DNA of 39,464 nt from a virus, in IMG/VR virus record IMGVR_UViG_3300047175_000261, positions 1-39,464 of that record; one strand, written 5' to 3'. The position numbers and the translations under genes are program-made. The notes under the pieces are model-generated. The model was not told where the DNA came from. It saw nothing but the letters and a program-made list of their open reading frames with translations, and searched no databases. Shown here piece after piece: positions 1 through 39,464 of this stretch (within the stretch, counting starts at the first letter, position 1; every line of letters starts with the position of its first letter).

Positions 1-986
1 AACAATTAACCTGGCTCCCACAAGGTAATATTGCGCCTGCGGTAAATTGGAAATCGAAAAGTTTGCCTGCGAAATCGGAGGCATGAAGTTGACAAACCCG
101 TATCCCGAAGAAGGAGTAGGAGGAGATCCCGCCGTAGGATCTCCGTCATACCATCGAATGCAATCCTTTGTGGAACTCGAAACGTTGGTGAGATATTGGA
201 TCATTCCTCCCGTGTACGTGTCGCTTGCAATTGAGGCATAAGGAAAAGAAACCACAACCGTAGTTCCGGAAACCGATGTCACAAATCCCGTTTGAAAGTT
301 GAGGGATTGGCTGTTTGCGGTGGTGGACCCCACAAACTCATTTACAAACACCCAATCGCCTACAACAAGAGGGGTCGCCGTAATGGTAAACGTCATGCTT
401 GTCGAGCTCGTACGGCTGATCGTGGCCGGAATCTGAAACTGCATTCCAATATTTGTCGTGGTAAACGGAATCGTGATGCCGGGGGTAACCCAAAAACTGT
501 TTTGATAATTCGTACTCCAAAACTGCTGATAATTTTGAGCATTCCAAGTTACGGAAGTCCATGAAGTTTTAGCGGTATATGTAATGCCGTTGATTGTCGT
601 GGTTTGGGGATTTTTAAAAAAACTTACCTTGTAAGAAGAATAAGGGTAAGTATTTGTAATATTGTATGCATAGGTCGTATCAAAAGCTAAAGTGTTTACA
701 TAAGAAGACGCGGAATTGTAATAATCTTCCAATCCTAAAACAGGAAGGCCGGGATAGTAAGCAACCGTCCCGGTCATGGTTTGTCCGCCTCCTGCGGCGA
801 TAAAAAGAACCCCTGTCGCGTAGTTAATGGACCCTGAACTTCCCGAGCCTCCGCTCAGCGTTAAAACTCCTGTTCCCAAAGGGTCCGTATATGTCGTTCC
901 GTCGGAACTTCCCACTAAACTAATACTTGTGGGAACAATCGAGGCAGTAGACGGCAATCCTAAAGCGGTGATCAAATTCACTTCCT
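1..986. repeat. Left copy of the 986-bp contig overlap
   Basis: This stretch is repeated in the same direction at 38479-39464, a constant offset of 38478. I see four substitutions: g100/a38578, a922/g39400, a925/g39403 and g954/a39432. The repeat lies inside a coding region that is only complete when the two ends are merged, so it is best read as assembly overlap of a circular or circularly permuted genome. Exact terminal repeats made by a packaging enzyme would be identical. Confidence 0.93.
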
Positions 987-1751: not shown

Positions 1752-2936
1752 TTAAATGCCTGCGCCTTGACCCAATGAATCAACAGACCCTTGCGATCCT
1801 GAATTACTAAAAATGGTTTCGGTTCGGGTTGCAGTAAATTGTCTTTGACTTCGTTTCCAAACAAGACGTTCCTGTTCGATAAACAAAGGCTCGTAAAACT
1901 GAAATTGCTCCACGTCTCCCGTATCACTCAAAATTTTGCGTGCCGCACCTCTGGCGATGTATTCAGCCATGTAGCCGAAAGGAATAGCTTGTGATGAGCT
2001 CAGAAACGCTGCGGGACTTAAATACGCTTCCAACGAAATAAGGTAAGATTGGTTGGAAGGAGGAAGAATGGTCAATGTGTTGTTATAATACAAAATTCCG
2101 CGAGGCAATCCCGGGTTATAATAGTAATTTTGTGCCTGAATTTGCACATCATCGTCAATAATGACCGCTTCTCCGGTCAAAGGATTGGTAAAAGTCACAT
2201 TGGCTTCTCCTGTGACATAATTGACCGTGTTGAGACTTGTGCTGTATCCACCGGACAATGCTGTGTTCCCGGAAGGAGCATTGCCCGTTGCCATCAAAAG
2301 ACCATAGTTTTGATTCGAAGACAAAAACTGTCCGCTATCGGCCACGATGTACGTTGTTCCGTCGTTATTGGTTGCCGTAAAGTACACCGCAGATTGAACG
2401 GAAGTTGTGGGAATATTGGTGTTAAACGTGCTGACAAGAGGAGGGTCTTGATTGCTGCCCCCGTTGTTAATATAGGCTTGGATTCCCGTGATGTCGATAT
2501 GACCCGAAATGCAAGGGGCATACGAAAGCGTGATCGTGTAATTGCTATTGATGCCGTCCCCAACGGCTGCGGGATTTAACGATTGAACATACAACGGGAA
2601 AAGATTCAAAAAGGGGCTTTTTTGCGTGTAAAAAGGGATTGCAATCCCGTTTACTAAACATGTCGGAGTAAACCCTTGGTAAACGGGAAAACATGCAATG
2701 TTTTTGGGTCCCGGTTCGGTTTGCACGTTGTACAAAGGCATGTTGTAATTGATCTGATACGGAGTCGTTTGAAACTGATACGTTGTTTTGAGGTCAAACA
2801 ATTGAATGCGGGCATCCACATCCATCAACCAAAATCGATTGATGTAATCAATAATTAAATTATCGCTGATGGATGAATCGGAAGGGCTTTTAATAATCCT
2901 TCGAACATATGTAATAATATCCGATAAATAATTAAT
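1752..2936 (-). CDS. Head-tail adaptor/tail protein, probable AUU start
   Basis: The frame is open from just after TAA 2948-2946 and has no ATG, GTG or TTG until TTG 2828. Yet the intervening 36 codons read like the conserved start of this family (INYLSDIITYVRRIIKSP, then IIDYINRF). The only well-placed start is ATT 2936-2934, six bases after the Shine-Dalgarno AAGGA, which itself overlaps the stop codon of the upstream gene. This gives 394 residues; starting at 2828 would give 358. The body is beta-rich; a helical C-terminal segment (GYMAEYIARGAARKIL, then EQERLVWKRSQ) resembles podovirus adaptor or gatekeeper proteins. The genomic place, between capsid and tail nozzle genes, agrees. Function is inferred. 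Confidence 0.75.
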   Translation of the reverse strand: MNYLSDIITYVRRIIKSPSDSSISDNLIIDYINRFWLMDVDARIQLFDLKTTYQFQTTPYQINYNMPLYNVQTEPGPKNIACFPVYQGFTPTCLVNGIAIPFYTQKSPFLNLFPLYVQSLNPAAVGDGINSNYTITLSYAPCISGHIDITGIQAYINNGGSNQDPPLVSTFNTNIPTTSVQSAVYFTATNNDGTTYIVADSGQFLSSNQNYGLLMATGNAPSGNTALSGGYSTSLNTVNYVTGEANVTFTNPLTGEAVIIDDDVQIQAQNYYYNPGLPRGILYYNNTLTILPPSNQSYLISLEAYLSPAAFLSSSQAIPFGYMAEYIARGAARKILSDTGDVEQFQFYEPLFIEQERLVWKRSQRQFTATRTETIFSNSGSQGSVDSLGQGAGI

Positions 2937-2945
2937 AAAATTTCC

Positions 2946-3539
2946 TTATTGCTGACTGATAAAAATGGAAGTTTTGTTTTTGTTGACGGGATGAGCGTCC
3001 AACCGTTGTTTTTTCCCTTCGGAAATCATGCTTCCGGTAAAGGTTCCCATCCCGGTCTGCGCTGTTTGTTTGTTTTCATCCATTTTTAACACGGTGTAAT
3101 TTTTTCGTTTGATCTGCTCCGCAAGGTAACGAGGACCCCAAATAGGGACTCCTACGGGAACTTCCCAAAACTCCGCCGGAACTCCCGAATAAGGTTTGGT
3201 CCACATCTCGATAATGTCTTTGGTTTCATGGTTTTCGGCAATGAAAGCGACCTTTTGCTTGTCAAATTCCCACTCTCTGCGAAAACGTTCGTTGAATTTG
3301 TTTTTATCCCCTACAATCGCAGAAGGCTTGATGTAATAGTCTTCAAATCCGTTGATTTGAGCTTGAGAAAGAGGTCGAAGAAGATTGGGATTAGTCATCG
3401 GCTTTGAAAAATCAACCTTTCGCAAAGGAACGTCGTCGGTATGCTCTCGAATTTGTTCCGGCAATTGCGCGATTTGCTCCGCGGCTCTGTCCAAATCTTT
3501 TTGTGCTTCCGCGTTGACTCGAGGTCTTTCCTGTCCCAT
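2946..3539 (-). CDS. Conserved virion-region protein of unknown function
   Basis: 197 residues, ATG 3539 preceded by a GGAG-type ribosome site. It begins with a charged helical segment (VNAEAQKDLDRAAEQIAQLP) followed by a mixed alpha/beta region rich in Lys, Glu and aromatic residues; no signal peptide, membrane segment or catalytic motif is visible. It lies within the run of capsid and tail genes, and its stop codon TAA is part of the Shine-Dalgarno for the following AUU-start gene, so the two are probably translationally linked. I do not recognise the family with confidence. Confidence 0.75.
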   Translation of the reverse strand: MGQERPRVNAEAQKDLDRAAEQIAQLPEQIREHTDDVPLRKVDFSKPMTNPNLLRPLSQAQINGFEDYYIKPSAIVGDKNKFNERFRREWEFDKQKVAFIAENHETKDIIEMWTKPYSGVPAEFWEVPVGVPIWGPRYLAEQIKRKNYTVLKMDENKQTAQTGMGTFTGSMISEGKKQRLDAHPVNKNKTSIFISQQ

Positions 3540-13891: not shown

Positions 13892-13928
13892 TTGTTAATT
13901 TTTCCATCGAGTAAACCTTATTAAAATC

Positions 13929-14000
13929 GGGAAATACAGGACTCGAACCCGCAACCTCCGGCGCGACAAGCCGGCATTCTAACCATTGAACTAATTTCCC
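13929..14000 (-). tRNA. tRNA-Asp (anticodon GTC)
   Basis: A 72-nt cloverleaf on the minus strand: 7-bp acceptor (GGGAAAT/ATTTCCC), D arm with AATGGTTA loop, anticodon stem CCGGC/GCCGG around loop TTGTCGC (anticodon GTC), and T arm with TTCGAGT loop. The 3' CCA is not encoded. The T stem contains two G.U pairs. It begins only 3 bases after the last hairpin of repeat array A, so tRNA and array are probably in one transcript and separated by tRNA processing. Confidence 0.95.
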
Positions 14001-14211
14001 ATCGCCGGTTCACCACCGGCACTAATCTTATCTCGTCAATTCGGTTCAAATCTTATCATCTCATATCCGGTGATCTCATTTCACCTCATATCAGTTCACA
14101 TCAATTTTATAAGACTTCGCAGACATAAAGCCCGGTCACCCCGGGCACTAATCTAATCACTTCATTTCAAGTCATTTCACATCAAATCACATCAGATCAC
14201 TTCATTTTACT
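14001..14211 (-). repeat. Array A: two GGUGA-loop hairpins joined by 5-nt UGA repeats
   Basis: Read on the minus strand, the stop codon TAA (14214-14212) of the upstream gene falls exactly on a lattice of TAA and TGA triplets every 5 nt: TCA on the plus strand at 14157, 14162 and so on to 14202, ten in a row. Then come hairpin A1 (14130-14146, GCCCGG-GGTGA-CCGGGC), a small GCGA-loop hairpin, a second pentamer run, and hairpin A2 (14004-14020, GCCGGT-GGTGA-ACCGGC), which abuts tRNA-Asp. The two hairpins are 126 nt apart. A 55-nt block (14035-14089) is identical to 36248-36302 in array C. The design recurs in arrays B and C. No coding frame fits it. Confidence 0.9.
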
Positions 14212-14514
14212 TTATTTAATTTTACTCCCTCTTTTTCGACCCCTCTTATTGTCGTACAGCTTCCAATCATCGTCATCGTAAACGGAAAGGTCCAAAACGG
14301 CACGATCCGTGATCTTGTGCAAGTTTTTGTCCACATCCATCGCTCCGAAAAAGAAAGGGTCCGATGAAATTACGGTTCCTTTTTCCATCAAAGACGGAGT
14401 TACAATGGTAAGATATTCTACCTTCTTGTATTCATTTCCCAACAACAATTTCAAACCCTTCTGATAAATTCTTTCGCCCTTTACCAATTCTTTATACGCT
14501 TCTTTAAAGTTCAT
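14212..14514 (-). CDS. Possible DUF2829/Tad2-like small protein
   Basis: 100 residues. The N-terminus MNFKEAYKELVKGERIYQKG follows the MNF-x-EA-x-x-L-x-x-G-x-x-(V/I) pattern of DUF2829, and residues about 75-88 (DLSVYDDDDWKLYD) match the D-x-x-x-x-D-DW ending of that family. DUF2829 is the fold of Tad2, a phage protein that sequesters the signal molecule of the Thoeris defence system. The middle is divergent and a basic tail (NKRGRKRGSKIK) is added, so the match is weak. It overlaps the upstream gene by 11 bases and is followed at once by repeat array A. Treat anti-defence function as a hypothesis. Confidence 0.7.
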   Translation of the reverse strand: MNFKEAYKELVKGERIYQKGLKLLLGNEYKKVEYLTIVTPSLMEKGTVISSDPFFFGAMDVDKNLHKITDRAVLDLSVYDDDDWKLYDNKRGRKRGSKIK

Positions 14515-21097: not shown

Positions 21098-21700
21098 ATG
21101 GAATTTAGGACATCAAGTGATTCAATAGGGCAAATTTCAAGCGCACTAGCCAAAGCGCAGTTGCATATCGGCAATGCTTCAAAAGACGCAAAAAACCCCT
21201 TTTTCAAAAGCAAATACGCCGATCTGGCTTCGGTTCGAGAAGCATGTCGAAAACCTTTATCCGAAAACGGTCTTGCTTTGACCGGAAGTGTGATTTGTGA
21301 AAACGGATTGTGGATGTACGTAGGAAAACTTAGCCATGCCGAAAGCGGAGAGTGGTTTCAAACGTACGTCCCCCTCCTGATGGCCAAGAACGACATGCAA
21401 TCATTTGGAAGCGCACAGACATACGCGGAACGATATGCAATTAAATCTCTTTGCGCGATTGCCACCGAAGACGATGACGGAAATGAAGCATCCGCAAAAA
21501 CAAGCGCAACACCCGTAACGCAAGTTCTCAAAAAAATTACCGGAGAACAGTTGGACACTCTCGTTTTCACTTTGAACATTACCGATGAGGAAAAGGCCAA
21601 CATGACCTCGCATTACAAAGTTGCGAATCTTGAGGACTTGTCTTTTGATCAAGCGGTCAATGCCATTGCGATCTTGGAAAAGAAAAGGGCTCCAAAATGA
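21098..21700 (+). CDS. erf: ERF-family single-strand annealing protein
   Basis: 200 residues; ATG 21098 sits behind a strong AGGAGG. The N-terminal domain has the ERF pattern: a helix, then NPFFKSKYADL (33-43), SVREACRKPLSENGLALTG, and the SFGSAQTYAERYAIKSLCAI segment near residues 107-126. ERF proteins bind and anneal complementary single strands during phage recombination, often to circularise or repair phage DNA. The gene overlaps the YqaJ exonuclease gene by four bases (ATGA), so the pair forms an exonuclease/annealase system like lambda Exo/Bet. The C-terminal region (from about 145) is a variable linker plus small helical domain. Confidence 0.92.
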   Translation: MEFRTSSDSIGQISSALAKAQLHIGNASKDAKNPFFKSKYADLASVREACRKPLSENGLALTGSVICENGLWMYVGKLSHAESGEWFQTYVPLLMAKNDMQSFGSAQTYAERYAIKSLCAIATEDDDGNEASAKTSATPVTQVLKKITGEQLDTLVFTLNITDEEKANMTSHYKVANLEDLSFDQAVNAIAILEKKRAPK

Positions 21701-22566
21701 TCGAAATTGATTTGTTCCAAGGAAGCAAGGAATGGAAAGAGTATCGAAAAAAAAGGATTGGGGCGAGTGACGTCGCCGCAATTATGGGCCTTTCCCCCTT
21801 TCAAACCCCTTATCAAAAATGGTTGGAAAAAGTGGAAGACGTGGAACAAGAATCCACATTTTCCATGAAAAGAGGGACGAACAGAGAAAAAGAAGGTCGA
21901 GAATACTACGAAAAAACGGTGGGATACAAAGTGTACCCTAAAGTGGTACAGTCAAGAGAATACGATTGGTTTTTTTGTTCTTTGGACGGAATCAGCCAAG
22001 ACGAAACGTATATGGTCGAAATCAAATGGGCCAACCAAGACGTGCATCGAATGGCCAAAAGCGGAGTGGTTGTGGATTATTACTACACGCAATGCCAAGC
22101 TCAACTTTTTTGCGTAAACAAGAGATCCATGGATTTTTTGAGTTGTTTTGAAAAAGACGGAGACAGAGAGTTTGCGTTGGTGTCCGTAACAAGAGATTCT
22201 CTTTTTCAAGAAAAAATGCTGGAAAAATGCTCTCAATTCTACCATGATCATCTCCTCACCAAAAACCCACCCCCTTTATCGGACAAAGATTACCAAGTCG
22301 CGGACGACGACTCGCTCGAACTTCTTTGTCTGGATTATGAACGAGCATCGGCCATTATTAGAAAAGAGGAAGAAATCAAAAAAGAGATTCTGGAGAAAAT
22401 AAAAGAAAGAGTTGACAATCGAAACACGATGTCCAATCTTTTCAAGATCACCAAGTTTAAACCGAAAGGGGTGATTGACTATTCGGCCGTTGAAGAGCTG
22501 AAAAACGTGGACCTGGAAAAGTACAGGAAAGACTCGAAGGAACAATGGAGAATCACAAAACGATGA
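21697..22566 (+). CDS. YqaJ-type (lambda Exo-like) exonuclease
   Basis: 289 residues. The fold's signature is visible: RIGASDVAAIMG (20-31), RGTNREKEGREYYE (59-72), SLDG with Asp97, VEIK with Glu108 and Lys110, and the YYTQCQAQLF segment (129-138) with its Gln residues. It should degrade one DNA strand from double-strand ends to feed the coupled ERF annealing protein. Its ATG overlaps the ERF stop by four bases. The C-terminal ~90 residues are charged and helical, as in other members. Confidence 0.92.
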   Translation: MIEIDLFQGSKEWKEYRKKRIGASDVAAIMGLSPFQTPYQKWLEKVEDVEQESTFSMKRGTNREKEGREYYEKTVGYKVYPKVVQSREYDWFFCSLDGISQDETYMVEIKWANQDVHRMAKSGVVVDYYYTQCQAQLFCVNKRSMDFLSCFEKDGDREFALVSVTRDSLFQEKMLEKCSQFYHDHLLTKNPPPLSDKDYQVADDDSLELLCLDYERASAIIRKEEEIKKEILEKIKERVDNRNTMSNLFKITKFKPKGVIDYSAVEELKNVDLEKYRKDSKEQWRITKR

Positions 22567-23079: not shown

Positions 23080-23101
23080 AAAAAAGCCCCCAAACGGGGG
23101 C
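23080..23101 (-). terminator. Terminator closing array B on the minus strand
   Basis: Minus-strand GCCCCC-GTTT-GGGGGC is followed by six Ts, a standard Rho-independent terminator. It replaces the GGUGA hairpin as the last unit of array B, in the same AGTGCC context, just as the last hairpin of array C is a terminator. It ends 3 bases from the stop codon of the convergent rightward gene. Confidence 0.85.
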
Positions 23102-23459
23102 ACTATTCTATTCATTTCATGTCTCTTCAGCTCAATTCACTTCACATTAAATCATTTCATTTTTTTAGCCCTTGCGGACACAAAGCCCACTCACCGTGGG
23201 CACTAATCTAATCTAGTCATATCTAGTCATATCATTTCATCTCATCTCAAGTCATTTCAATTTCATAAGCTCTTTCGAACACAAAGCCGGTTCACCACCG
23301 GCACTAATCTTATCTCGTCATTTCAGCTCATGTCAGCTCATATCATTTCAGCTTCTCTAGCCTTTGCGGACACAAAGCCGGTTCACCACCGGCACTATTC
23401 TAATCTGATCATTTCATATCATCTCAGATCACCTCAGCTCAAATCAGCTCATATTAAAC
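23102..23459 (-). repeat. Array B: three GGUGA-loop hairpins joined by 5-nt UGA repeats
   Basis: Read on the minus strand. Hairpins: B1 23377-23393 and B2 23286-23302 (GCCGGT-GGTGA-ACCGGC) and B3 23185-23201 (GCCCAC-GGTGA-GTGGGC), 91 and 101 nt apart, followed by the terminator at 23080-23101. After each hairpin come TTTGTG and a small tetraloop hairpin (B2 at 23269-23280, GAAA loop; B3 at 23168-23179, GCAA loop). The rest is TGA every 5 nt: plus-strand TCA at 23409 to 23449 is nine in a row, 23318 to 23348 seven. It lies antisense-facing between two rightward genes, so it needs its own leftward transcript. No protein-coding frame is credible here; this accounts for the gene-free stretch 23078-23500. 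Confidence 0.9.
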
Positions 23460-26292: not shown

Positions 26293-26832
26293 TTAGCCCG
26301 TACTAATTGCATAAAGAGTAAATATTCCGGAACTAATGTTTCCGTTATTATACAAAAATTTAATTGCATTCACTCCCGTTGTTCCGGAACAAGTTAAACT
26401 ATGAGAAGAAGCTAATTGAGCTAAAGAAGAATCGTTCCAGGAAGTTATTCCATTTAAAATAAAATATGTTCCTAAATTAAAATTATACAAATAAATAAAT
26501 CCATTTGAAGTAATTGAACCGTTATTTTGCGATGCTGTTAATAATGCTGCCGATGAAGAATTATTATTATATAAAGAAGCTGAATTATAACCCGAATAAG
26601 TTATTCCTGAATTATATCCCGTTGTTGCATAAGAAGAACCGTTATTCGTAGAAACAAGAAGTTGTAAAACCCCTCCGTTTGTAACTGCTTGTACTTCGGA
26701 AAAAACAACGTAAAAAGTTAAATTTCCATAAGAAGAAAGATTGGTAAACGAAATCGATGCAGAGTTGCTTGCTGTTTGGGAGGAAATTAAAATTAAATTA
26801 ACTTTATTGTTTATTGCATTGTTTGTAGCCAT
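26293..26832 (-). CDS. Fibre-cassette protein, short paralog
   Basis: 179 residues beginning MATNNAINNKVNL. From residue 13 it is closely related to the C-terminal half of the next upstream gene (LISSQTASNSASISFTNLSS against LISSQSASNSASISFTGLSS; VSTNNGSSY and SGITYS in both). It lacks the ~120-residue Ser/Ala-rich shaft of its relatives. It probably forms the same receptor-binding head on a shorter stalk. Strongly Ser/Asn/Tyr-rich, as is typical of fibre tips. AT-rich compared with upstream virion genes. Confidence 0.78.
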   Translation of the reverse strand: MATNNAINNKVNLILISSQTASNSASISFTNLSSYGNLTFYVVFSEVQAVTNGGVLQLLVSTNNGSSYATTGYNSGITYSGYNSASLYNNNSSSAALLTASQNNGSITSNGFIYLYNFNLGTYFILNGITSWNDSSLAQLASSHSLTCSGTTGVNAIKFLYNNGNISSGIFTLYAISTG

Positions 26833-26838
26833 GATTAC

Positions 26839-27693
26839 CTAGGATTGAGAAATTGAATATAAACTAAAAGTGCCCGCTAAAATATTTCCCGTAGAATATG
26901 AAAATTGAATTGCATTCACTCCCGTTGTGGAAAAAGCCCCCAAAGCGACCGTATTTACAATATTTGAAGCCGTTGTATCCGTCCAGCTTGTCATCCCGTT
27001 AACGGCAAAATAAGTTGCAAGATTTATATTGTACAAATACAAAAATCCGTTTAATTCATTTGCTCCTGAATTTGATTGTGTATTACTTAATAAAATTGCG
27101 CTTGTACTGTTTTTATTTGTTAAAGTTGCTGAATTGTACGCAGAATAAGTAATTCCGGAAGTATATCCTGAAGTAATATAAGAAGATCCGTTATTGGTTG
27201 ACACAAACATTTGTAAAACAGCTGCGTTTGTTACGGGAGCGATTGTATCCAAAGTTAAAAAAAGCATCGAACTATACGAACTCAATCCCGTAAACGAAAT
27301 CGATGCAGAGTTGCTTGCGGATTGAGAAGAAATTAACTGCAAACTTCCTCCGGTAGATCCCGGAACTTTTGTTGACCATTGAGGAACGGATCCCGACGTT
27401 GTTGTCAACACGGAACTTGCGGTAGGCGCCAAAACGGAAACGGTATTGGTTGCGGACCCGTACAACAAACCTCCGGAAGCAACCGTTGAAGGATAAGTTG
27501 AAGAAGCCCATGAAGGGGCCGACGATGCCCCTGAAAGTAAAGGTTGGCTTGCCGTTGAAGTTCCCGCAAGAACGGCAAGAGCGGAAGAACCGCTGTAGAC
27601 AATTCCCCCGTTGGATGCAGTCAAAGAAGCATTCGTGCCTCCTTGCGCAAGCGTTAAAGGATTGCTTGTGTTGGTTGAATTGTTTGTTGCCAT
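26839..27693 (-). CDS. Fibre-cassette protein, long paralog
   Basis: 284 residues beginning MATNNSTNTSNPLTLAQGGT. Residues about 10-120 are a repetitive Gly/Ser/Ala shaft (ASNGGIVYSG, LLSGASSAPSW, LLYGSATNTV), which is shared with the next gene upstream; the C-terminal half is shared with the 179-residue gene downstream. It thus looks like a recombination-built fibre of a conserved shaft plus exchangeable head. Its start shares one base with the stop of the upstream gene. Confidence 0.8.
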   Translation of the reverse strand: MATNNSTNTSNPLTLAQGGTNASLTASNGGIVYSGSSALAVLAGTSTASQPLLSGASSAPSWASSTYPSTVASGGLLYGSATNTVSVLAPTASSVLTTTSGSVPQWSTKVPGSTGGSLQLISSQSASNSASISFTGLSSYSSMLFLTLDTIAPVTNAAVLQMFVSTNNGSSYITSGYTSGITYSAYNSATLTNKNSTSAILLSNTQSNSGANELNGFLYLYNINLATYFAVNGMTSWTDTTASNIVNTVALGAFSTTGVNAIQFSYSTGNILAGTFSLYSISQS

Positions 27694-28541
27694 TAACTTG
27701 TTGAAACTCCATATAAACTATATGTTCCCGACGCAATATTTCCTGAAGAATAATAAATTTCGAAAGCATTTACATTTGTTGTGCAAAAACCTGAAAGAGA
27801 TGCAGATGTATTCACCGCCGGTGTTAAATTATAAAAAGTACTAATCCCATTTAACATAAAATAAGTTGAAAGATTTAAATTGTACATATACAAAACTGCA
27901 TTACAAGTATTTGAAGAACTGTTGGGTTGTCCGTTGGAAATTCTAAATAAATTGGTAAAATTTGCGTTGCTCAACGAAGAAGAATTATACAAATTTGAAT
28001 TCAAATTCGCGGTATATCCCGATGTAAGGTAGGAAGACCCGTTATTGGTAGAAACTCTGCAAATTAAAGTTCCGTTTGTGGTAGCCGGATAAAAAGATTG
28101 CAAAAACAGTACATAATTTACATACGAGGTTAAGGAAGTAAAAGTAATACTCGAAACACCCGTTGCAGTTCCCGTGCTGATCAATTTTAAACTTCCCCCT
28201 GCAGAAGAAGGCAACGAAGAAGACCATTGTAAAGCCGATCCGGATGTTGTTGTTAAAATCGATGAAGCGGCGGAGGCAAAGTTTCCAACGACATTTGAAC
28301 TTGATCCATACAAAAGGTCATTAGCCGTTACCGTAGAAGGATAGGTAGCGGTGGACCAAGACGGTGCCGAAGATGCCCCTGAAAGCAAAAATTGGTTTGC
28401 CGTGGACGTGGGCGCAAGCAATGCCGATCCCGTAGCGTTCGAGTATACAACAGCTCCGTTGGAAGCGGTCAAAGCCCCCCCGGTTCCCCCTTGAGAAAAG
28501 GCAACGGGATTGCTTTGATTGTTCGCATTATTCGTCGCCAT
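27693..28541 (-). CDS. Fibre-cassette protein, long paralog
   Basis: 282 residues beginning MATNNANNQSNPVAFSQGGT, with the same shaft as the neighbouring paralog (ASNGAVVYSN, LLSGASSAPSW, LLYGSSSNVV) and a diverged head that keeps VSTNNGSSYLTSGYT. Conservation is high in the first 125 residues and lower in the head, the expected result of selection on receptor binding. One-base overlap with the next gene. Confidence 0.8.
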   Translation of the reverse strand: MATNNANNQSNPVAFSQGGTGGALTASNGAVVYSNATGSALLAPTSTANQFLLSGASSAPSWSTATYPSTVTANDLLYGSSSNVVGNFASAASSILTTTSGSALQWSSSLPSSAGGSLKLISTGTATGVSSITFTSLTSYVNYVLFLQSFYPATTNGTLICRVSTNNGSSYLTSGYTANLNSNLYNSSSLSNANFTNLFRISNGQPNSSSNTCNAVLYMYNLNLSTYFMLNGISTFYNLTPAVNTSASLSGFCTTNVNAFEIYYSSGNIASGTYSLYGVSTS

Positions 28542-28553
28542 ACACTCTCAATT

Positions 28554-29150
28554 TTAGACGTAGGTAAGATTTCCTTGAACTTGTACCACAGTCCAATCGG
28601 TATTCGCAACAGTGCAAAGCAAATATACGTTGTCATACTGCAAAGAAGAGCTGAGAGACCCGGAACTGCCCGTGGTCGTATTGACACTTCCAAAGTGGAT
28701 TGTTTGCCCTGAGTTTTGCGCAATCGTCCATCCTCCCGCTCCTTTTCCAATCACGGCTACAACAGATCCAAAAGCTGCCGTAGAGGGTAAAGTAAAAGTC
28801 ACCAAAGATGCATTGTTTGCAGTATATCCCGTATTAACGGCAATGGTTTGAGAAGTCCCCGTTACATCCACATAACTCATCGCTGTTGCAGTGGAGTTGA
28901 TCGTGATTGACCCCGCAGCATTCGTAATGGAGATGTTGGTCCCGGCGGTCAAAGTAGCGGCAACGGGATTGGCTCCGGTAGAACCCACTAAAAGTTGACC
29001 GTTGGTCAAAGGTCCGATGGAGGTAATTCCGTTGGAAGCTGCACCGACAAGAGGAGCATACTGAGTTGTGGTGTCTGCGCTGAATGTTCCCGAACCGTTA
29101 TATACAACGATCCCCGCGCTGGTTAGGTTAATTGCATTGTTTGTAGCCAT
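28554..29150 (-). CDS. Fibre-cassette protein with alternative head
   Basis: 198 residues beginning MATNNAINLTSAGIVVYNGS. The middle (NGQLLVGSTGANPVAATLTA) is a shaft segment common in phage fibres. The C-terminal ~100 residues (VNTGYTANNASLVTFTLPS, IAQNSGQTIHFGS, then VQVQGNLTYV) are paralogous to the head of the next upstream gene and differ from those of the two downstream relatives. It probably has a separate binding specificity or a structural role. Confidence 0.78.
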   Translation of the reverse strand: MATNNAINLTSAGIVVYNGSGTFSADTTTQYAPLVGAASNGITSIGPLTNGQLLVGSTGANPVAATLTAGTNISITNAAGSITINSTATAMSYVDVTGTSQTIAVNTGYTANNASLVTFTLPSTAAFGSVVAVIGKGAGGWTIAQNSGQTIHFGSVNTTTGSSGSLSSSLQYDNVYLLCTVANTDWTVVQVQGNLTYV

Positions 29151-33924: not shown

Positions 33925-34494
33925 TTAATAAAGTCCTAAAGATCTTGATCCGTAAATAGATCCTAAAGTTCCCGCTGCTTGCGATCCTGCTCCTCCCAAT
34001 CCCAACAAAAGTTGCTTCAAAAATCCCGGTTGCTTTTGTTGTTCGGGCACATAGATATTTTCGTACGGTCTTTGACCCAACAAAGAGTTGGAAATGCCCA
34101 TAAGATCTTGCAAAGCTTGTCTTTGGATTCCCATCCGTTGGCTTTGCAATTGCTGAGCAAAATCGGACGCGGCAGATGTAGCGGTGTTTTGGAATCCTGA
34201 AGAATTTCGAGCTCCAAAAGACCCCATTCCGCTAAACCGAGACCCTAACCCTCCCAGCAATCCCGAAAACTGTTGCATCGCGGGAGCTTCCAATTGGGCA
34301 AATTGCGATTGATCTCCGTTGGCTAACCTGGAAAGATTCGAATCGGGACTGACCCAAGAAAACAACTGCTTAAAAAGATTTGTTTGTTCAGGGGTAAACT
34401 GAGGAGTGGTAATTTGTTTATAACCCGTTCCCTGAAGTTTTTGAGAGAATAAAGGGCTTCCGCCGTAAGGGGACCCTCCAAACATTGATGACAT
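33925..34494 (-). CDS. Internal virion-type protein, Gly/Gln/Ser-rich
   Basis: 189 residues, rich in Gly, Ser, Gln and Phe (MSSMFGGSPYGGSPLFSQKL at the start), with a central helical segment (ASDFAQQLQSQRMGIQRQAL) and a Gly/Ala-rich hydrophobic stretch near 160-175 (LLLGLGGAGSQAAG). This pattern is frequent for the first protein of ejection sets in environmental podoviruses. First gene of the leftward set opposite the gene at 34639. Role inferred. Confidence 0.65.
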   Translation of the reverse strand: MSSMFGGSPYGGSPLFSQKLQGTGYKQITTPQFTPEQTNLFKQLFSWVSPDSNLSRLANGDQSQFAQLEAPAMQQFSGLLGGLGSRFSGMGSFGARNSSGFQNTATSAASDFAQQLQSQRMGIQRQALQDLMGISNSLLGQRPYENIYVPEQQKQPGFLKQLLLGLGGAGSQAAGTLGSIYGSRSLGLY

Positions 34495-34638
34495 ACGCCC
34501 TCCAATTTTTTCTTTACTTTACACAAGTCAAAAAATAATTTCTTCAAAAATGTGGATGAAATAAAGATTCAGAATTGAAAAGTTGAATGTTTTTATGTTA
34601 ACCTATACCGCAAAAAACCCCTAAAACGAGGAGATGAA

Positions 34639-35283
34639 ATGAACGTAGATAAAATTAAAGTAAATATTACAGGTGTAACCCCTCTTTTGCTTCACAACGG
34701 AAGAACGGCCAACCCTCTTGATCCCTATTGCAAAAAGATGAAGAGTTTGGTGTCCAAAAGGTCCAAAACCGACGAAGATCACGAAGAAATTCTCGATGTT
34801 CAATGGGAAGCGGCTTTGTATTTTTCCGAAAGAATCGGTCTTTATATGCCCAGCGAAAACATCTTTGCTGCGATCTCTACAGCGGCTCGAAAGCATAAAC
34901 TCGGACAAAAGTCCGGAGGAATTTCTTTAACCGAAGCACTGGGATATCCAATCGTTACAGCCAATCACTTGAGCTTAGCCGATCTGAAAGCGGATCGGAC
35001 GAATCGTTTTTACAAAACGGTCAACATCCAAAAATCCAAAACCCTTTCCTGTCGTCCCATCTTTAACGATTGGAAAATGGAATTTGAGTTTGAGTTTGAA
35101 AAAGACATCGTAGATGTCAACGAAATCATGACCATTTTGATGACACTCAATTCAAGAGTGGGCTTTGGAGTGTGGAGACCGTCCAGTCCAAAACCGGGGT
35201 CTTACGGGAAATTTATCTATAACAACATCGATTACATCGATCATAAAGGAAAGGTAAACAACCTATGGACTCTCCCATCCTAA
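34639..35283 (+). CDS. Conserved phage protein of unknown function
   Basis: 214 residues behind GGAG (ATG 34639). The start (KINITGVTPLLLHNGRT-like) and the later PSENIFAAISTAARKHKLGQ, CRPIFNDW and VGFGVWRPSSPKPGSYGKF segments match a widespread phage protein I have seen without known function. The layout of an N-terminal strand ending PLL-x-HN, a helix and a Gly-rich C-terminal strand recalls RAMP-like ferredoxin folds, but that is a guess. A promoter-like TATACC lies about 30 bases before the start. It is transcribed rightward, apart from the late operons, with the next gene. Confidence 0.75.
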   Translation: MNVDKIKVNITGVTPLLLHNGRTANPLDPYCKKMKSLVSKRSKTDEDHEEILDVQWEAALYFSERIGLYMPSENIFAAISTAARKHKLGQKSGGISLTEALGYPIVTANHLSLADLKADRTNRFYKTVNIQKSKTLSCRPIFNDWKMEFEFEFEKDIVDVNEIMTILMTLNSRVGFGVWRPSSPKPGSYGKFIYNNIDYIDHKGKVNNLWTLPS

Positions 35284-35798
35284 ATAAAAGCCATACTTCT
35301 AAAAAAATAAAGTCGATCAAAAACCAAATTCAACTCCTCAAAAACGAGGGGTTGATCAAAGCCGGTAAAGTGTTTGAAAAGGAAACCATCGAGTTGATCC
35401 TTGGGGTTTCGTACAAAAAAGAGGATTGGGAATTTTTAGGCCCTTACCTTGCTTTTATTTCTCTCATTGAAGCCGAAGGATTTTTTGTCACTCAACGAGG
35501 GATGGAACCCCCTGCGTTTCGTTTGCTGGAATCTAAAGAGATGGCAGACCATGCGGAGCGAAAGCTTGTCAAAAACATGATGAGCAACATGAAAATTGGG
35601 TATATTTTGGCGGCTCATGACACAACTTCTTTAAACGAAGAAGAGCGAAAAAAGCATGAGCATATTCAAAAGAAAGCCGCTCGAACTTCGTTGTTTCAAC
35701 AAAAGCTTTTAATGGAAGATGTTCTTTTTGATTATCTTGTAGAAGATAAAAATCAAAAGATGAATTTAGAAAGTCCTATTAACTTTGATGAATATTAA
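35265..35798 (+). CDS. Unknown protein preceding repeat array C
   Basis: 177 residues; ATG 35265 overlaps the previous gene by 19 bases. It is helical and charged: SKKIKSIKNQIQLLKNEGLI near the start, a central domain (FLGPYLAFISLIEAEGFFVT) and a Lys/Glu-rich end. The N-terminal part may bind nucleic acid. Its stop is followed directly by repeat array C, so the array probably forms the 3' untranslated part of this mRNA. No family recognised. Confidence 0.7.
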   Translation: MDSPILNKSHTSKKIKSIKNQIQLLKNEGLIKAGKVFEKETIELILGVSYKKEDWEFLGPYLAFISLIEAEGFFVTQRGMEPPAFRLLESKEMADHAERKLVKNMMSNMKIGYILAAHDTTSLNEEERKKHEHIQKKAARTSLFQQKLLMEDVLFDYLVEDKNQKMNLESPINFDEY

Positions 35799-36320
35799 TT
35801 AAAATAAATTAAAATGAGATGAAATGATGTGAGATGAAATGAAGTGAATACATAAGATTAGTGCCCGGGGTGACCGGGCTTTGTGTTCGAAAGAGCTTAT
35901 GAAATTGAAATGACTTGAGATGAGCTGAGATGAATTGAAATGAGATGCTATCAGAGGAAATGAGTTGAGCGGATTAGAATAGTGCCGGTGGTGAACCGGC
36001 TTTGTGTCTGTATAGGCTTATGAAATTGAGATGAGCTGAGATGAATTGAAATGAGCTGATTTAAGATGAAATGAAGTGACTAGATTAGATTAGTGCCCAT
36101 GGAGAGTGGGCTTTGTGTCCGCAAGGGCTTATGAAATTGAAATCAGTTGAGCTGATGTGAAGTGAATTGAGTAGAAGTGATTAGATAAGATTAGTGCCCG
36201 GGGTGACCGGGCTTTGTGTTCGAAAGAGCTTATGAATTTGAATTGAGATGAGGTGAAATGAGATCACCGGATATGAGATGATAAGATTTGAACCGAATTG
36301 ACTAGACTAGACTAGATTAG
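35799..36320 (+). repeat. Array C: four GGUGA-loop hairpins joined by 5-nt UGA repeats
   Basis: Hairpins: C1 35863-35879 and C4 36196-36212 (GCCCGG-GGTGA-CCGGGC), C2 35984-36000 (GCCGGT-GGTGA-ACCGGC), C3 36095-36111 (GCCCAT-GGAGA-GTGGGC). Each is followed by TTTGT and a 4-bp hairpin with a GAAA, GTAT or GCAA loop (35885-35896, 36006-36017, 36117-36128, 36218-36229) whose stems co-vary. Then, after TTATGAA, TGA triplets recur every 5 nt, for example 35815 to 35845 (seven in a row) and 35906 to 35941 (eight). Hairpin-to-hairpin distances are 121, 111, 101 and 126 nt, all 5n+1. A terminator at 36322-36344 is the last unit. This gene-free stretch has no credible coding frame. Confidence 0.92.
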
Positions 36321-36321
36321 T

Positions 36322-36344
36322 GCCCGGGTAAACCGGGCTTTTTT
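36322..36344 (+). terminator. Rho-independent terminator ending array C
   Basis: GCCCGG-GTAAA-CCGGGC followed by TTTTTT. It takes the place of the fifth array hairpin and ends the rightward transcript from 34639. The T run contains the stop codon of the convergent leftward gene (36345-36343). Confidence 0.9.
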
Positions 36345-36840
36345 ATGGCTGGCTGAGCCAAGAAAGAACGATAATTCCCGAAGACAAACTCGGTGCTCCC
36401 GTCCCTGTTTCAAACACAATCTGCGTCGAATTCACATAAAAAGAAATTTGCCCTGCAATCGATGTAGAAGTCCCAAAAATCAATCCGTAACTGCTTGTCC
36501 CATCCGTATACGATCCAAAACATTCCGTAAATTGTGAAGGGCTAATCACGTTAATCCCGTGTGTAATCGATGAGGTCGAACTAAACGAATAGACTTGCCG
36601 AAGCTCTTGCTGACGATTTTGAAACTGTTGCGTCTGACTTGAAATATAATACGTGTTTCCCGTCAATGCGGGACGATTGGTTGGAAATAACGAAATCGTT
36701 CGATTGTTGACCGCGGCCGCAACGTCTACGTACATTCTGTTTACCTCGACAGTTAGTTGCCGAAGATCTTCCGGAAAGTTACGAGAGGTTCGAAGGTATG
36801 GGGTTTGATTGATGATGTCGGGATTGTTATTCGTTGTCAT
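36343..36840 (-). CDS. Tail protein downstream of the nozzle gene
   Basis: 165 residues; ATG 36840 with AAGGAA upstream. It starts MTTNNNPDIINQTPYLRTSR, then a helical segment (FPEDLRQLTVEVNRMYVDVA) followed by a beta-rich C-terminus (VYSFSSTSSITHGINVISP, then IFETGTGAPSL-like strand and IIVLSW). A helix followed by a small beta domain at this place, after the tail nozzle gene, is common in environmental podoviruses and is probably a needle, tip or fibre-linker protein. Last gene of the first late operon. Function inferred. Confidence 0.72.
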   Translation of the reverse strand: MTTNNNPDIINQTPYLRTSRNFPEDLRQLTVEVNRMYVDVAAAVNNRTISLFPTNRPALTGNTYYISSQTQQFQNRQQELRQVYSFSSTSSITHGINVISPSQFTECFGSYTDGTSSYGLIFGTSTSIAGQISFYVNSTQIVFETGTGAPSLSSGIIVLSWLSQP

Positions 36841-36846
36841 GGTTCC

Positions 36847-39464
36847 TTAACAAAGCATTTGGCTAGGCGTGCAATCGAGTGTGGCTCCGTGAAACTCAAT
36901 TTCTGCAAAATAGTTTTGAAGAGTCGTGTCTCTCATTTGCGCATCGGACAAAATAAACCCAAATTGCACCGTATCACCAATCAAAGAAGTATTCAATCGA
37001 TGCCAAATTTGCGATTGAGTAGGCGCTGTTGGGGTGTTCAAATTGTACGTAAATTCCGTGAGCCCCAAATTTGTTGATTCCGCACACGTGTACAAAACGG
37101 TGCTGTAAATCGTTCCTGAGTTTTGCACTCCCGACAGATTGATTCCCGGCAACGAAGGGAACAAAGGATCGGTCGAAGTCATCGTATTGTACACATTGGT
37201 CGAGTCTTGACTTAAAAACATCATCAAAGTGAGTTCGTTAATTGGTGTAGATGTAAACAAGTATTGCTGCACCCCCAACCTTGTTTTACGACCCATCGAC
37301 CAAGACAAAGGAAATTGCTTGGATTGAATAAAGGGAACATACAAGCGTTGGATCAAACCCGCTCCCAAATAGGTATACGATGACTCGTTAAATCCGGCAT
37401 CGATCACAAACGTGTTTTGCGTGGTAAAAGAAACTTTATATACATTTCCATTGAGTTCTGTTCCAATGGTTCCCAAAGCTCCGCTGATTAAAATATAATC
37501 ACCGTCATTGAGCATATGATTGTACGATGTGATCGTAACCGTCGTTCCCCCCGAAAAAGAGGTAATGAGCAAAGAAGTTGCTTCCCCGGTCCCTTGACCT
37601 CGAATGACGACAAACCCTTGCGCATTTCCTGCAATCACCTCCGGTTGTAAAAGAGTCGATTGCCCTGCATTCCAAGGATCGTTCCATTGCTCCCAAGTTG
37701 CATACACCGTACCAATCGTTCCCCATGTTTGTCCTGTGGATCTGCGAAAAGATCCATACGTAGTATACGATTCGTAAAACAATCCGTACGAATTATCCCG
37801 ATAGTTGTATTGCAACGTTGCGCTCGGAAATAAGAAATTGCTATTGACCAAATTACTGTTAAAAGAAAAATAGATCCATTCGTTGATATAATCCCTTTGG
37901 GCACAAATCCTTTGTGCTCCGTTGTTGAGCAATGAAATCTCAAAGATTTCATCGGGGATGTCCAAATCGATCCTTTCCGCCCCTGTTTGCGTTGTAATGA
38001 TGTATCCTCGACTTCCAACGCTAAACACCCCTTTATCCATGACAACGGTTGAAAAAGTGGATTGTGTTCCAAGTTCCGAGTTGACGATGAAGAAGTTGAA
38101 CGGTACAATGTCGTTGCCGGTGTAGATCATTCGCGTCTGTTTCGTCGGGAAACCGACGAGCAATACGTCTTCATTCCCTCCTACGGAAATTATAGGTTGA
38201 TCTACACCGACATTTTGAAATCCTCCAAATCCCGTCACATCCGAAAAATAGGCCGAAGGCGTTGCGGTCTCAAGAGTTTGGACCGATGCTCCGGGATTGT
38301 ATCCCGCAACCAAAAGCGGATAAAACGTGGTAGAAGCCGAAACAGGCGATCCGGAAAACGATGCCGTATAATACGGAGTCCCGTTTTGAGAGTATACAAT
38401 CGTGTCTTGCAAATAGATGGGCGTTCCCGATGAGGTTTGCACAACAACCCCAAAAAAAATCAATCGATCTTTAAATGGAACAATTAACCTGGCTCCCACA
38501 AGGTAATATTGCGCCTGCGGTAAATTGGAAATCGAAAAGTTTGCCTGCGAAATCGGAGGCATGAAGTTGACAAACCCATATCCCGAAGAAGGAGTAGGAG
38601 GAGATCCCGCCGTAGGATCTCCGTCATACCATCGAATGCAATCCTTTGTGGAACTCGAAACGTTGGTGAGATATTGGATCATTCCTCCCGTGTACGTGTC
38701 GCTTGCAATTGAGGCATAAGGAAAAGAAACCACAACCGTAGTTCCGGAAACCGATGTCACAAATCCCGTTTGAAAGTTGAGGGATTGGCTGTTTGCGGTG
38801 GTGGACCCCACAAACTCATTTACAAACACCCAATCGCCTACAACAAGAGGGGTCGCCGTAATGGTAAACGTCATGCTTGTCGAGCTCGTACGGCTGATCG
38901 TGGCCGGAATCTGAAACTGCATTCCAATATTTGTCGTGGTAAACGGAATCGTGATGCCGGGGGTAACCCAAAAACTGTTTTGATAATTCGTACTCCAAAA
39001 CTGCTGATAATTTTGAGCATTCCAAGTTACGGAAGTCCATGAAGTTTTAGCGGTATATGTAATGCCGTTGATTGTCGTGGTTTGGGGATTTTTAAAAAAA
39101 CTTACCTTGTAAGAAGAATAAGGGTAAGTATTTGTAATATTGTATGCATAGGTCGTATCAAAAGCTAAAGTGTTTACATAAGAAGACGCGGAATTGTAAT
39201 AATCTTCCAATCCTAAAACAGGAAGGCCGGGATAGTAAGCAACCGTCCCGGTCATGGTTTGTCCGCCTCCTGCGGCGATAAAAAGAACCCCTGTCGCGTA
39301 GTTAATGGACCCTGAACTTCCCGAGCCTCCGCTCAGCGTTAAAACTCCTGTTCCCAAAGGGTCCGTATATGTCGTTCCGTCGGAACTTCCCACTAAACTG
39401 ATGCTTGTGGGAACAATCGAGGCAGTAGACGACAATCCTAAAGCGGTGATCAAATTCACTTCCT
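36847..39464 (-). CDS. Tail stabilization/nozzle-type protein, C-terminal part (runs off the window edge)
   Basis: This is the same gene as at 1-1194; 38479-39464 duplicates 1-986. The merged product is 941 residues (36847-38478 plus 1-1194). The sequence is beta-rich throughout, with a DRLIFFGVVVQTSSG segment, a TRMIYTGNDIVPF-type segment and, near residues 690-760, an FCCH-like unit (VTITSYNHMLNDGDYILISG then LNGNVYKV and NTFVIDA). P22 gp10- and T7 gp12-like tail proteins are large beta-propeller proteins with similar size and place. Among the copies, g954/a39432 changes Pro to Ser; the other three differences are silent. Confidence 0.85.
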   Translation of the reverse strand, partial: EVNLITALGLSSTASIVPTSISLVGSSDGTTYTDPLGTGVLTLSGGSGSSGSINYATGVLFIAAGGGQTMTGTVAYYPGLPVLGLEDYYNSASSYVNTLAFDTTYAYNITNTYPYSSYKVSFFKNPQTTTINGITYTAKTSWTSVTWNAQNYQQFWSTNYQNSFWVTPGITIPFTTTNIGMQFQIPATISRTSSTSMTFTITATPLVVGDWVFVNEFVGSTTANSQSLNFQTGFVTSVSGTTVVVSFPYASIASDTYTGGMIQYLTNVSSSTKDCIRWYDGDPTAGSPPTPSSGYGFVNFMPPISQANFSISNLPQAQYYLVGARLIVPFKDRLIFFGVVVQTSSGTPIYLQDTIVYSQNGTPYYTASFSGSPVSASTTFYPLLVAGYNPGASVQTLETATPSAYFSDVTGFGGFQNVGVDQPIISVGGNEDVLLVGFPTKQTRMIYTGNDIVPFNFFIVNSELGTQSTFSTVVMDKGVFSVGSRGYIITTQTGAERIDLDIPDEIFEISLLNNGAQRICAQRDYINEWIYFSFNSNLVNSNFLFPSATLQYNYRDNSYGLFYESYTTYGSFRRSTGQTWGTIGTVYATWEQWNDPWNAGQSTLLQPEVIAGNAQGFVVIRGQGTGEATSLLITSFSGGTTVTITSYNHMLNDGDYILISGALGTIGTELNGNVYKVSFTTQNTFVIDAGFNESSYTYLGAGLIQRLYVPFIQSKQFPLSWSMGRKTRLGVQQYLFTSTPINELTLMMFLSQDSTNVYNTMTSTDPLFPSLPGINLSGVQNSGTIYSTVLYTCAESTNLGLTEFTYNLNTPTAPTQSQIWHRLNTSLIGDTVQFGFILSDAQMRDTTLQNYFAEIEFHGATLDCTPSQMLC
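38479..39464. repeat. Right copy of the 986-bp contig overlap
   Basis: Counterpart of 1-986 in the same direction. Four substitutions, three of them within the last 65 bases. Merging the copies gives a circular unit of about 38,478 bp. Confidence 0.93.

What the first reader, a model, noticed from the sequence alone, without database searches (positions are those of the whole stretch)
35799..36344. Array C: a tandem RNA-like repeat system after a rightward gene
Seen directly: four GC hairpins with a constant GGUGA (once GGAGA) loop, each followed by TTTGT, a 4-bp tetraloop hairpin, TTATGAA and then long runs of UGA triplets every 5 nt, ending in a true terminator. Stems change in a compensating way (GCCCGG/CCGGGC, GCCGGT/ACCGGC, GCCCAT/GTGGGC), and the tetraloop stems do too (GTTC/GAGC, GTCT/AGGC, GTCC/GGGC). 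This is the signature of selection on RNA structure. I know of no described family with this layout. Inference: a structured 3' RNA or a protein sponge comparable in design to CsrB/RsmZ.
Basis: partly seen in the sequence, partly recalled or inferred. Interest (0 to 1): 0.9.

Follow-up and report, generated by a model that had tools for sequence, protein, structure and literature searches.

The report
UGA-coded VIPR guide RNA array
This phage carries a set of guide-RNA-like repeats that belong to VIPR, a phage RNA-guided DNA-recognition system related to CRISPR and described only in 2026, but written with a different repeat triplet (UGA instead of GGY) and spread over three places in the genome.

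Summary
Together they hold 11 units, each with 9-16 pentamers UGA-NN followed by a structured 3' tail. The triplet is nearly fixed, the NN positions are close to random, and both tail stems co-vary. The gene just upstream of array C's second gene (34639-35283) is a homologue of the Vipr protein: E=2.4e-27 to PDB 36pp 'SUSP1 Vipr protein', and its predicted fold (pLDDT 91) best matches CRISPR Csm/Cas7-type backbone chains. 89 of 97 Vipr-bearing loci (window included) have 5-nt-periodic arrays nearby; 0 of 20 control pieces without Vipr do. Most are GGY/NN, as in the only paper on VIPR found (PMC13142463). Mechanism inferred: each UGA is held by one Vipr subunit and the NN pairs spell a gapped DNA target, probably in a competing phage. 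New relative to that text: the UGA triplet, three dispersed arrays (one abutting a tRNA), and a two-hairpin tail. No natural target was established. Verdict: new variant of a known, very recent kind.

The parts
34639..35283 (+). vipr: RAMP (Cas7-like) protein, 214 aa
   Evidence: phmmer to PDB 36pp_D 'SUSP1 Vipr protein' E=2.4e-27; phrog_4652 E=1.7e-41; AlphaFold2 pLDDT 90.9; best Foldseek matches are CRISPR Csm/type VII backbone chains
35265..35798 (+). second gene of the locus, in the position of a vap (Vipr-accessory protein), 177 aa; overlaps vipr by 19 bp
   Evidence: Gene order; homologous over about 85 aa to the gene in the same position in L012 (BLASTP E=3e-11). No database match; model unreliable. 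DNA binding is not shown
35795..35859 (+). vrRNA C1 guide region (UGA repeats from 35815; TAA-like pentamers before)
35863..35896 (+). C1 tail: hairpin 35863-35879 (loop GGTGA), tetraloop hairpin 35885-35896
35906..35980 (+). vrRNA C2 guide region, 15 repeats
35984..36017 (+). C2 tail: hairpin 35984-36000, tetraloop hairpin 36006-36017
36027..36091 (+). vrRNA C3 guide region, 13 repeats
36095..36128 (+). C3 tail: hairpin 36095-36111 (loop GGAGA), tetraloop hairpin 36117-36128
36138..36192 (+). vrRNA C4 guide region, 11 repeats
36196..36229 (+). C4 tail: hairpin 36196-36212, tetraloop hairpin 36218-36229
36239..36318 (+). vrRNA C5 guide region, 16 repeats; shares a run of 10 NN with A2
36322..36344 (+). 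C5 tail / intrinsic terminator (GCCCGGGTAAACCGGGC TTTTTT)
23397..23456 (-). array B, vrRNA B1 guide region
23360..23393 (-). B1 tail
23306..23350 (-). vrRNA B2 guide region, 9 repeats
23269..23302 (-). B2 tail
23205..23259 (-). vrRNA B3 guide region, 11 repeats
23168..23201 (-). B3 tail
23105..23159 (-). vrRNA B4 guide region, 11 repeats
23086..23101 (-). B4 tail / intrinsic terminator hairpin (T6 follows)
14150..14224 (-). array A, vrRNA A1 guide region (UGA repeats from 14204)
14113..14146 (-). A1 tail
14024..14103 (-). vrRNA A2 guide region, 16 repeats
14004..14020 (-). A2 tail hairpin; the second hairpin is missing and a tRNA begins 2-3 nt further on
13927..14001 (-). tRNA-Asp (GTC) directly 3' of vrRNA A2; possible RNase P processing point (inference)

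Best explanation
The arrays encode VIPR guide RNAs (vrRNAs). Shown here: a Vipr (RAMP/Cas7-fold) gene and a second small gene lie directly upstream of array C; eleven units of 9-16 pentamers have a near-fixed UGA triplet and near-random NN; eight units carry a conserved, co-varying two-hairpin tail and three end instead in a terminator or at a tRNA. Inferred from the paper on VIPR: Vipr subunits assemble along the RNA, one per pentamer, each holding the UGA and presenting the NN; the NN dinucleotides together spell a gapped DNA target (two paired bases, one skipped); binding silences a gene of a competing phage or satellite in the same host; the tail is the constant handle that caps the guide. 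Compared with the published consensus, this system uses UGA instead of GGY, and its guides sit in three dispersed arrays that one vipr gene would serve in trans.
For: Vipr homologue at array C: E=2.4e-27; family profile 3.9e-76 to the same chain; fold. Published layout: (PMC13142463: vipr + vap, 9-16 pentamers, conserved triplet / hypervariable NN, structured 3' tail, phage-borne). Units and phase statistics: (from the third repeat on, triplet identity between units 0.89, NN identity 0.32 against 0.28 expected from composition). Tail covariation. Association: 89 of 97 Vipr-bearing loci (window included) score at least 4.0 for period 5, 0 of 20 control pieces from relatives without Vipr. SUSP2, a Suspvirus like the experimentally studied SUSP1 as named, shows GGT/NN arrays in the same scan (L121). 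A second UGA/NN locus with a divergent Vipr: L162.
Against: No target was established. Nothing above shuffled guides in 1.6 Mb of held sequence, counting both strands. Of three 10-NN patterns scanned exactly in viral contigs, two gave nothing and one gave a single hit that chance could give. The triplet is not GGY; the paper allows 'a related consensus' without saying which in the text held. No pseudoknot was evident in the tail. The second gene has no match beyond relatives in the same position. No sigma-70-like promoter was found within 34400-36400.
Confidence: 0.9

Rival explanations
1. A sponge RNA: the repeated UGA motifs or the GGUGA hairpin loops titrate a regulatory RNA-binding protein (CsrA/RsmA-like, TRAP-like).
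For: Repeated short motif at a fixed spacing, exposed between stable hairpins.
Against: The NN positions are near-random and differ between units while triplet and tail are kept, which a sponge does not need. A RAMP gene is adjacent, and RAMP-flanking arrays with other triplets occur in dozens of loci. Loops are GGUGA, with a GGA only in C3.
Confidence: 0.03
2. A decayed pentanucleotide microsatellite between duplicated terminator hairpins, without a guide function.
For: Pentamer microsatellites of TGANN exist in other viral contigs; hairpins with T-rich 3' sides look like weak terminators.
Against: The microsatellites mostly have low entropy of the whole dinucleotide (below about 2 of 4 bits); here each NN position alone has about 1.9 of 2 bits with the triplet preserved. 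Tail stems change by compensation.
Confidence: 0.03
3. A DNA element: half-turn-spaced binding sites (iterons) for a DNA-binding protein, for replication, partition or packaging.
For: 5-bp spacing equals about half a helical turn; three dispersed copies.
Against: Stems co-vary as hairpins, and their orientation leads into a terminator or a tRNA; relatives with other triplets keep the array beside vipr.
Confidence: 0.02

Closest known systems
VIPR of Escherichia phage SUSP1 and Pseudomonas fulva prophage (PMC13142463; PDB 36pp)
   Same: Homologous Vipr protein; small second gene; noncoding arrays of 9-16 pentamers with conserved triplet and hypervariable NN; conserved 3' tail per unit; phage-borne
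   Different: UGA (some AGA) instead of GGY; tail of two successive hairpins without evident pseudoknot; eleven units in three dispersed arrays instead of all beside vipr; second gene not shown to be a relative of the published vap1
VIPR-like loci with other triplets found here: L012/L029 (GTT), L054-L059 (NGA), L064/L089 (AGC), L122/L123 (GCA, Listonella/Vibrio phages), L162 (TGA/TGG)
   Same: Vipr homologue plus 5-nt-periodic arrays
   Different: Different triplet and tail; in the tree the window Vipr is a lone long branch
CRISPR class 1 effectors (Cas7/Csm3)
   Same: RAMP fold of the protein; constant handle plus variable guide in the RNA
   Different: No CRISPR repeat, no adaptation genes seen; guide information is gapped, not contiguous
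CsrB/RsmZ sponge RNAs
   Same: Repeated protein-binding motifs in a hairpin-rich RNA
   Different: Hypervariable NN, RAMP partner, loops mostly without GGA

Membership tests
VIPR | Vipr protein (single-RRM RAMP homologue) | tested here: met
VIPR | Minimal locus: vipr plus a vap gene | tested here: inconclusive
   A second small gene overlaps vipr and is homologous to the gene in the same place in L012; kinship with a published vap and DNA binding not shown
VIPR | Noncoding tandem pentamers, 9-16 per unit | tested here: met
   9 to 16 repeats in 11 units
VIPR | Conserved triplet (GGY 'or a related consensus') alternating with hypervariable NN | tested here: met
   Met as a related consensus only: UGA, not GGY; NN entropies 1.92/1.87 bits
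VIPR | Constant structured 3' tail | tested here: met
   the pseudoknot reported for the SUSP1 clade was not evident here
VIPR | DNA recognition with a 1-nt skip (xNN) | tested here: inconclusive
   no significant target
VIPR | vrRNAs expressed and bound by Vipr | not testable with these tools
   Needs RNA sequencing and pull-down
CRISPR-Cas | Array of identical repeats with unique contiguous spacers, cas genes | tested here: not met
   Repeat search and gene scans show no such array or cas gene besides the RAMP; not every small ORF was scanned
CsrB/RsmZ | Repeated GGA in hairpin loops; match to an Rfam sponge family | tested here: not met
   Loops GGUGA (one GGAGA); no Rfam match up to E=1 in 35700-36400
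CsrB/RsmZ | CsrA/RsmA partner protein | not tested
   Host unknown; no CsrA search was made
Known Rfam family | Covariance-model match | tested here: not met
   only the tRNA

The most novel reading that the evidence does not exclude
VIPR triplets are an evolvable, mutually orthogonal 'address' layer: Vipr lineages have changed which triplet they hold (GGY, GTT, GCA, AGC, NGA, UGA), UGA arising in at least two divergent lineages (window and L162), so that VIPRs of competing phages in one cell do not load each other's guides; and this phage deploys guides in trans from three loci, one released by tRNA processing.
Probability: 0.4. Interest if true: 0.8.

Novelty: new variant of a known kind. 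Interest (0 to 1): 0.65.

Why it matters
VIPR was described only in 2026 as an RNA-guided DNA-recognition system proposed to precede CRISPR. A clean UGA-coded system, and a series of other triplets across Vipr lineages, make it directly testable which Vipr residues read the triplet, whether systems are orthogonal, and how guides placed far from the vipr gene are processed. If confirmed it would also widen the set of programmable DNA-binding systems beyond GGY-coded ones.

Tried and rejected
Exact scan of viral contigs with the hairpin/tail pattern: no other carrier. blastn of the array against phages and plasmids: no match. Tail covariance model on 56 loci: hits only in the window. Target search with 0-3 nt skips in 1.6 Mb (both strands counted) of held loci: no guide stands out from shuffled guides for any skip. 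Exact 10-NN target patterns in viral contigs (1-nt skip): A2/C5 none, C2 none, C3 one hit in L125, in frame with skips on wobble positions (65-aa ORF 2841-3038, minus strand, on a contig whose 3-1169 ORF reads like a T7-type RNA polymerase to my eye), but the next NN fails and the rough chance expectation is 0.1-0.3 in-frame plus 0.06-0.18 other hits for that scan, under an assumed collection size of 35-100 Gb: not counted as a target. NN composition as a test of codon reading: sense codon positions 1-2 fit best (4.5 bits) but hardly better than plain genome composition (4.0), so uninformative. A G-loop insertion specific to non-GGY Viprs was considered and dropped, since GGC systems L084/L095 have one too (the L162 row of that call was translated out of frame and was redone). 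The AlphaFold model of the second gene was too poor to use. Pseudoknot between loop GGUGA and the 3' flank: looked for by eye, not conserved.

Full report
What is there. Array C is as described, and the whole window holds three such arrays: A (two units, minus strand, running into tRNA-Asp), B (four units, minus strand, ending in a terminator) and C (five units, plus strand, ending in a terminator). A unit is a run of 9-16 pentamers UGA-NN, grading into AGA-NN near its 3' end, then AGUGCC and the tail: a 6-bp hairpin with loop GGUGA, UUUGU, and a 4-bp tetraloop hairpin. A1 and C1 are preceded by TAA-like pentamers. In B4 and C5 the tail hairpin is a terminator; in A2 the second hairpin is missing and the tRNA starts instead.

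More than chance. In 111 internal repeats the triplet is T in 100, G in 105 and A in 110, while NN entropies are 1.92 and 1.87 bits. From the third repeat before the tail onward, units share 89% of triplet letters but 32% of NN letters, against 28% expected from composition (leaving out the pair A2/C5). A2 and C5 share a run of ten NN, and C2 and C3 share five, which looks like duplication or shared targets. TGA pairs at spacing 5 number 31 in array C against a simulated maximum of 10. Tail stems: 5 of 10 pairs change on both sides, 97.5% of cells paired, 0 of 500 shuffles as high for the cell and score measures; the count of pairs with a two-sided change alone is not exceptional (78 of 500).

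What it is. Neighbours gave the answer. The first gene of the pair just before array C (34639-35283) belongs to phrog_4652, a family of unknown function. Its relatives in unrelated phages (L004-L006) and in a phage with a related terminase (L012) also lie beside 5-nt-periodic noncoding arrays, but with other triplets: GGC and GTT. The sequence looked RAMP-like to me, and I recalled a recent report on such systems; a literature search then found VIPR (PMC13142463), and the protein matches the solved SUSP1 Vipr protein at E=2.4e-27. The family profile matches the same chain at 3.9e-76 (that profile contains two Felix-O1-like relatives of SUSP1). The AlphaFold model (pLDDT 90.9) finds CRISPR Csm and type VII backbone chains first in the PDB library, with probability about 1.0 though modest TM-scores of about 0.4-0.55. 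Sequence and fold agree.

How general. Of 97 Vipr-bearing loci scanned (the window and 96 from viral contigs, genomes, phages and a plasmid; some are near-duplicates), 89 pass the period-5 threshold of 4.0. None of 20 pieces from terminase relatives without a Vipr match passes (highest 3.93). Two caveats: the threshold was chosen after seeing the first scan, and a few passing windows have a mixed consensus (for example L090, L124). Triplets are GGC/GGT in most; GTT/GAT in L037-L039; GTT in L029/L041; AGC in L064/L089; GCA in L122/L123; GGA/TGA/AGA in L054-L059; TGA in the window. A scan for seven consecutive TGANN in viral contigs gave 74 stretches, mostly microsatellites, but also L162, which has its own divergent Vipr (HMM E=1.4e-15) with TGA/TGG arrays on both sides of a small gene, and L187, a 25-repeat TGA array with no Vipr recognised on its 7-kb contig. 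In the tree the window Vipr is a lone long branch of unsure place, so how often the triplet changed cannot be counted firmly.

How it most likely works. By homology with the published system (inference): Vipr subunits coat the pentamers, hold the triplet and offer the NN; the guide reads double-stranded DNA as NN-skip-NN; binding represses genes of rival phages or satellites. One Vipr presumably serves all three arrays. Whether vrRNA A2 is released by RNase P at the tRNA is conjecture from the 2-3 nt gap between the A2 hairpin and the tRNA.

What could not be shown. No target: see Tried and rejected. Expression, binding, the skip rule for UGA guides and the role of the second gene are untested. 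The preprint's supplement was not readable here, so UGA may already be among its 'related consensus' motifs; novelty is stated with that reserve.

Verdict. Observation confirmed; sponge reading replaced by VIPR guide RNAs; new variant of a known kind (triplet, dispersal, tail).

Noticed in passing
window 1-986 and 38479-39464: The record's ends repeat each other over 986 bases with 4 mismatches, suggesting a complete, terminally redundant or circular genome of about 38.5 kb.
   Followed up: partly
L004:6597-7721, L006:5854-5915 (same contigs as L028, L035): Between GGC/NN arrays lie short elements with a TTCGA T-loop-like arm and a closing acceptor-like stem, resembling minimal tRNA-like (RNase P substrate) pieces; possible vrRNA tails.
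   Followed up: partly
L187:983-1107 (-): 25-repeat TGA/NN array with varied NN and a following GC hairpin on a contig without a recognised Vipr; could be a satellite's or a fragment's guide array.
   Followed up: partly
L174:8811-9195 (+): 77-repeat TGANN-like array with moderately varied NN (entropy 2.16), no Vipr on the 10.9-kb stretch held; repeats in blocks, nature unclear.
   Followed up: no
window 26293-28541 (-): Three paralogous stretches 546-854 bp apart (repeat families D7, D8, D12) in neighbouring genes; one of these genes matches a PHROG of unknown function, and a nearby gene (28554-29150) matches a tail fibre family.
   Followed up: no
window 21098-22566 (+): Erf-like annealing protein and RecE-like exonuclease side by side, a complete-looking recombination pair.
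   Followed up: no
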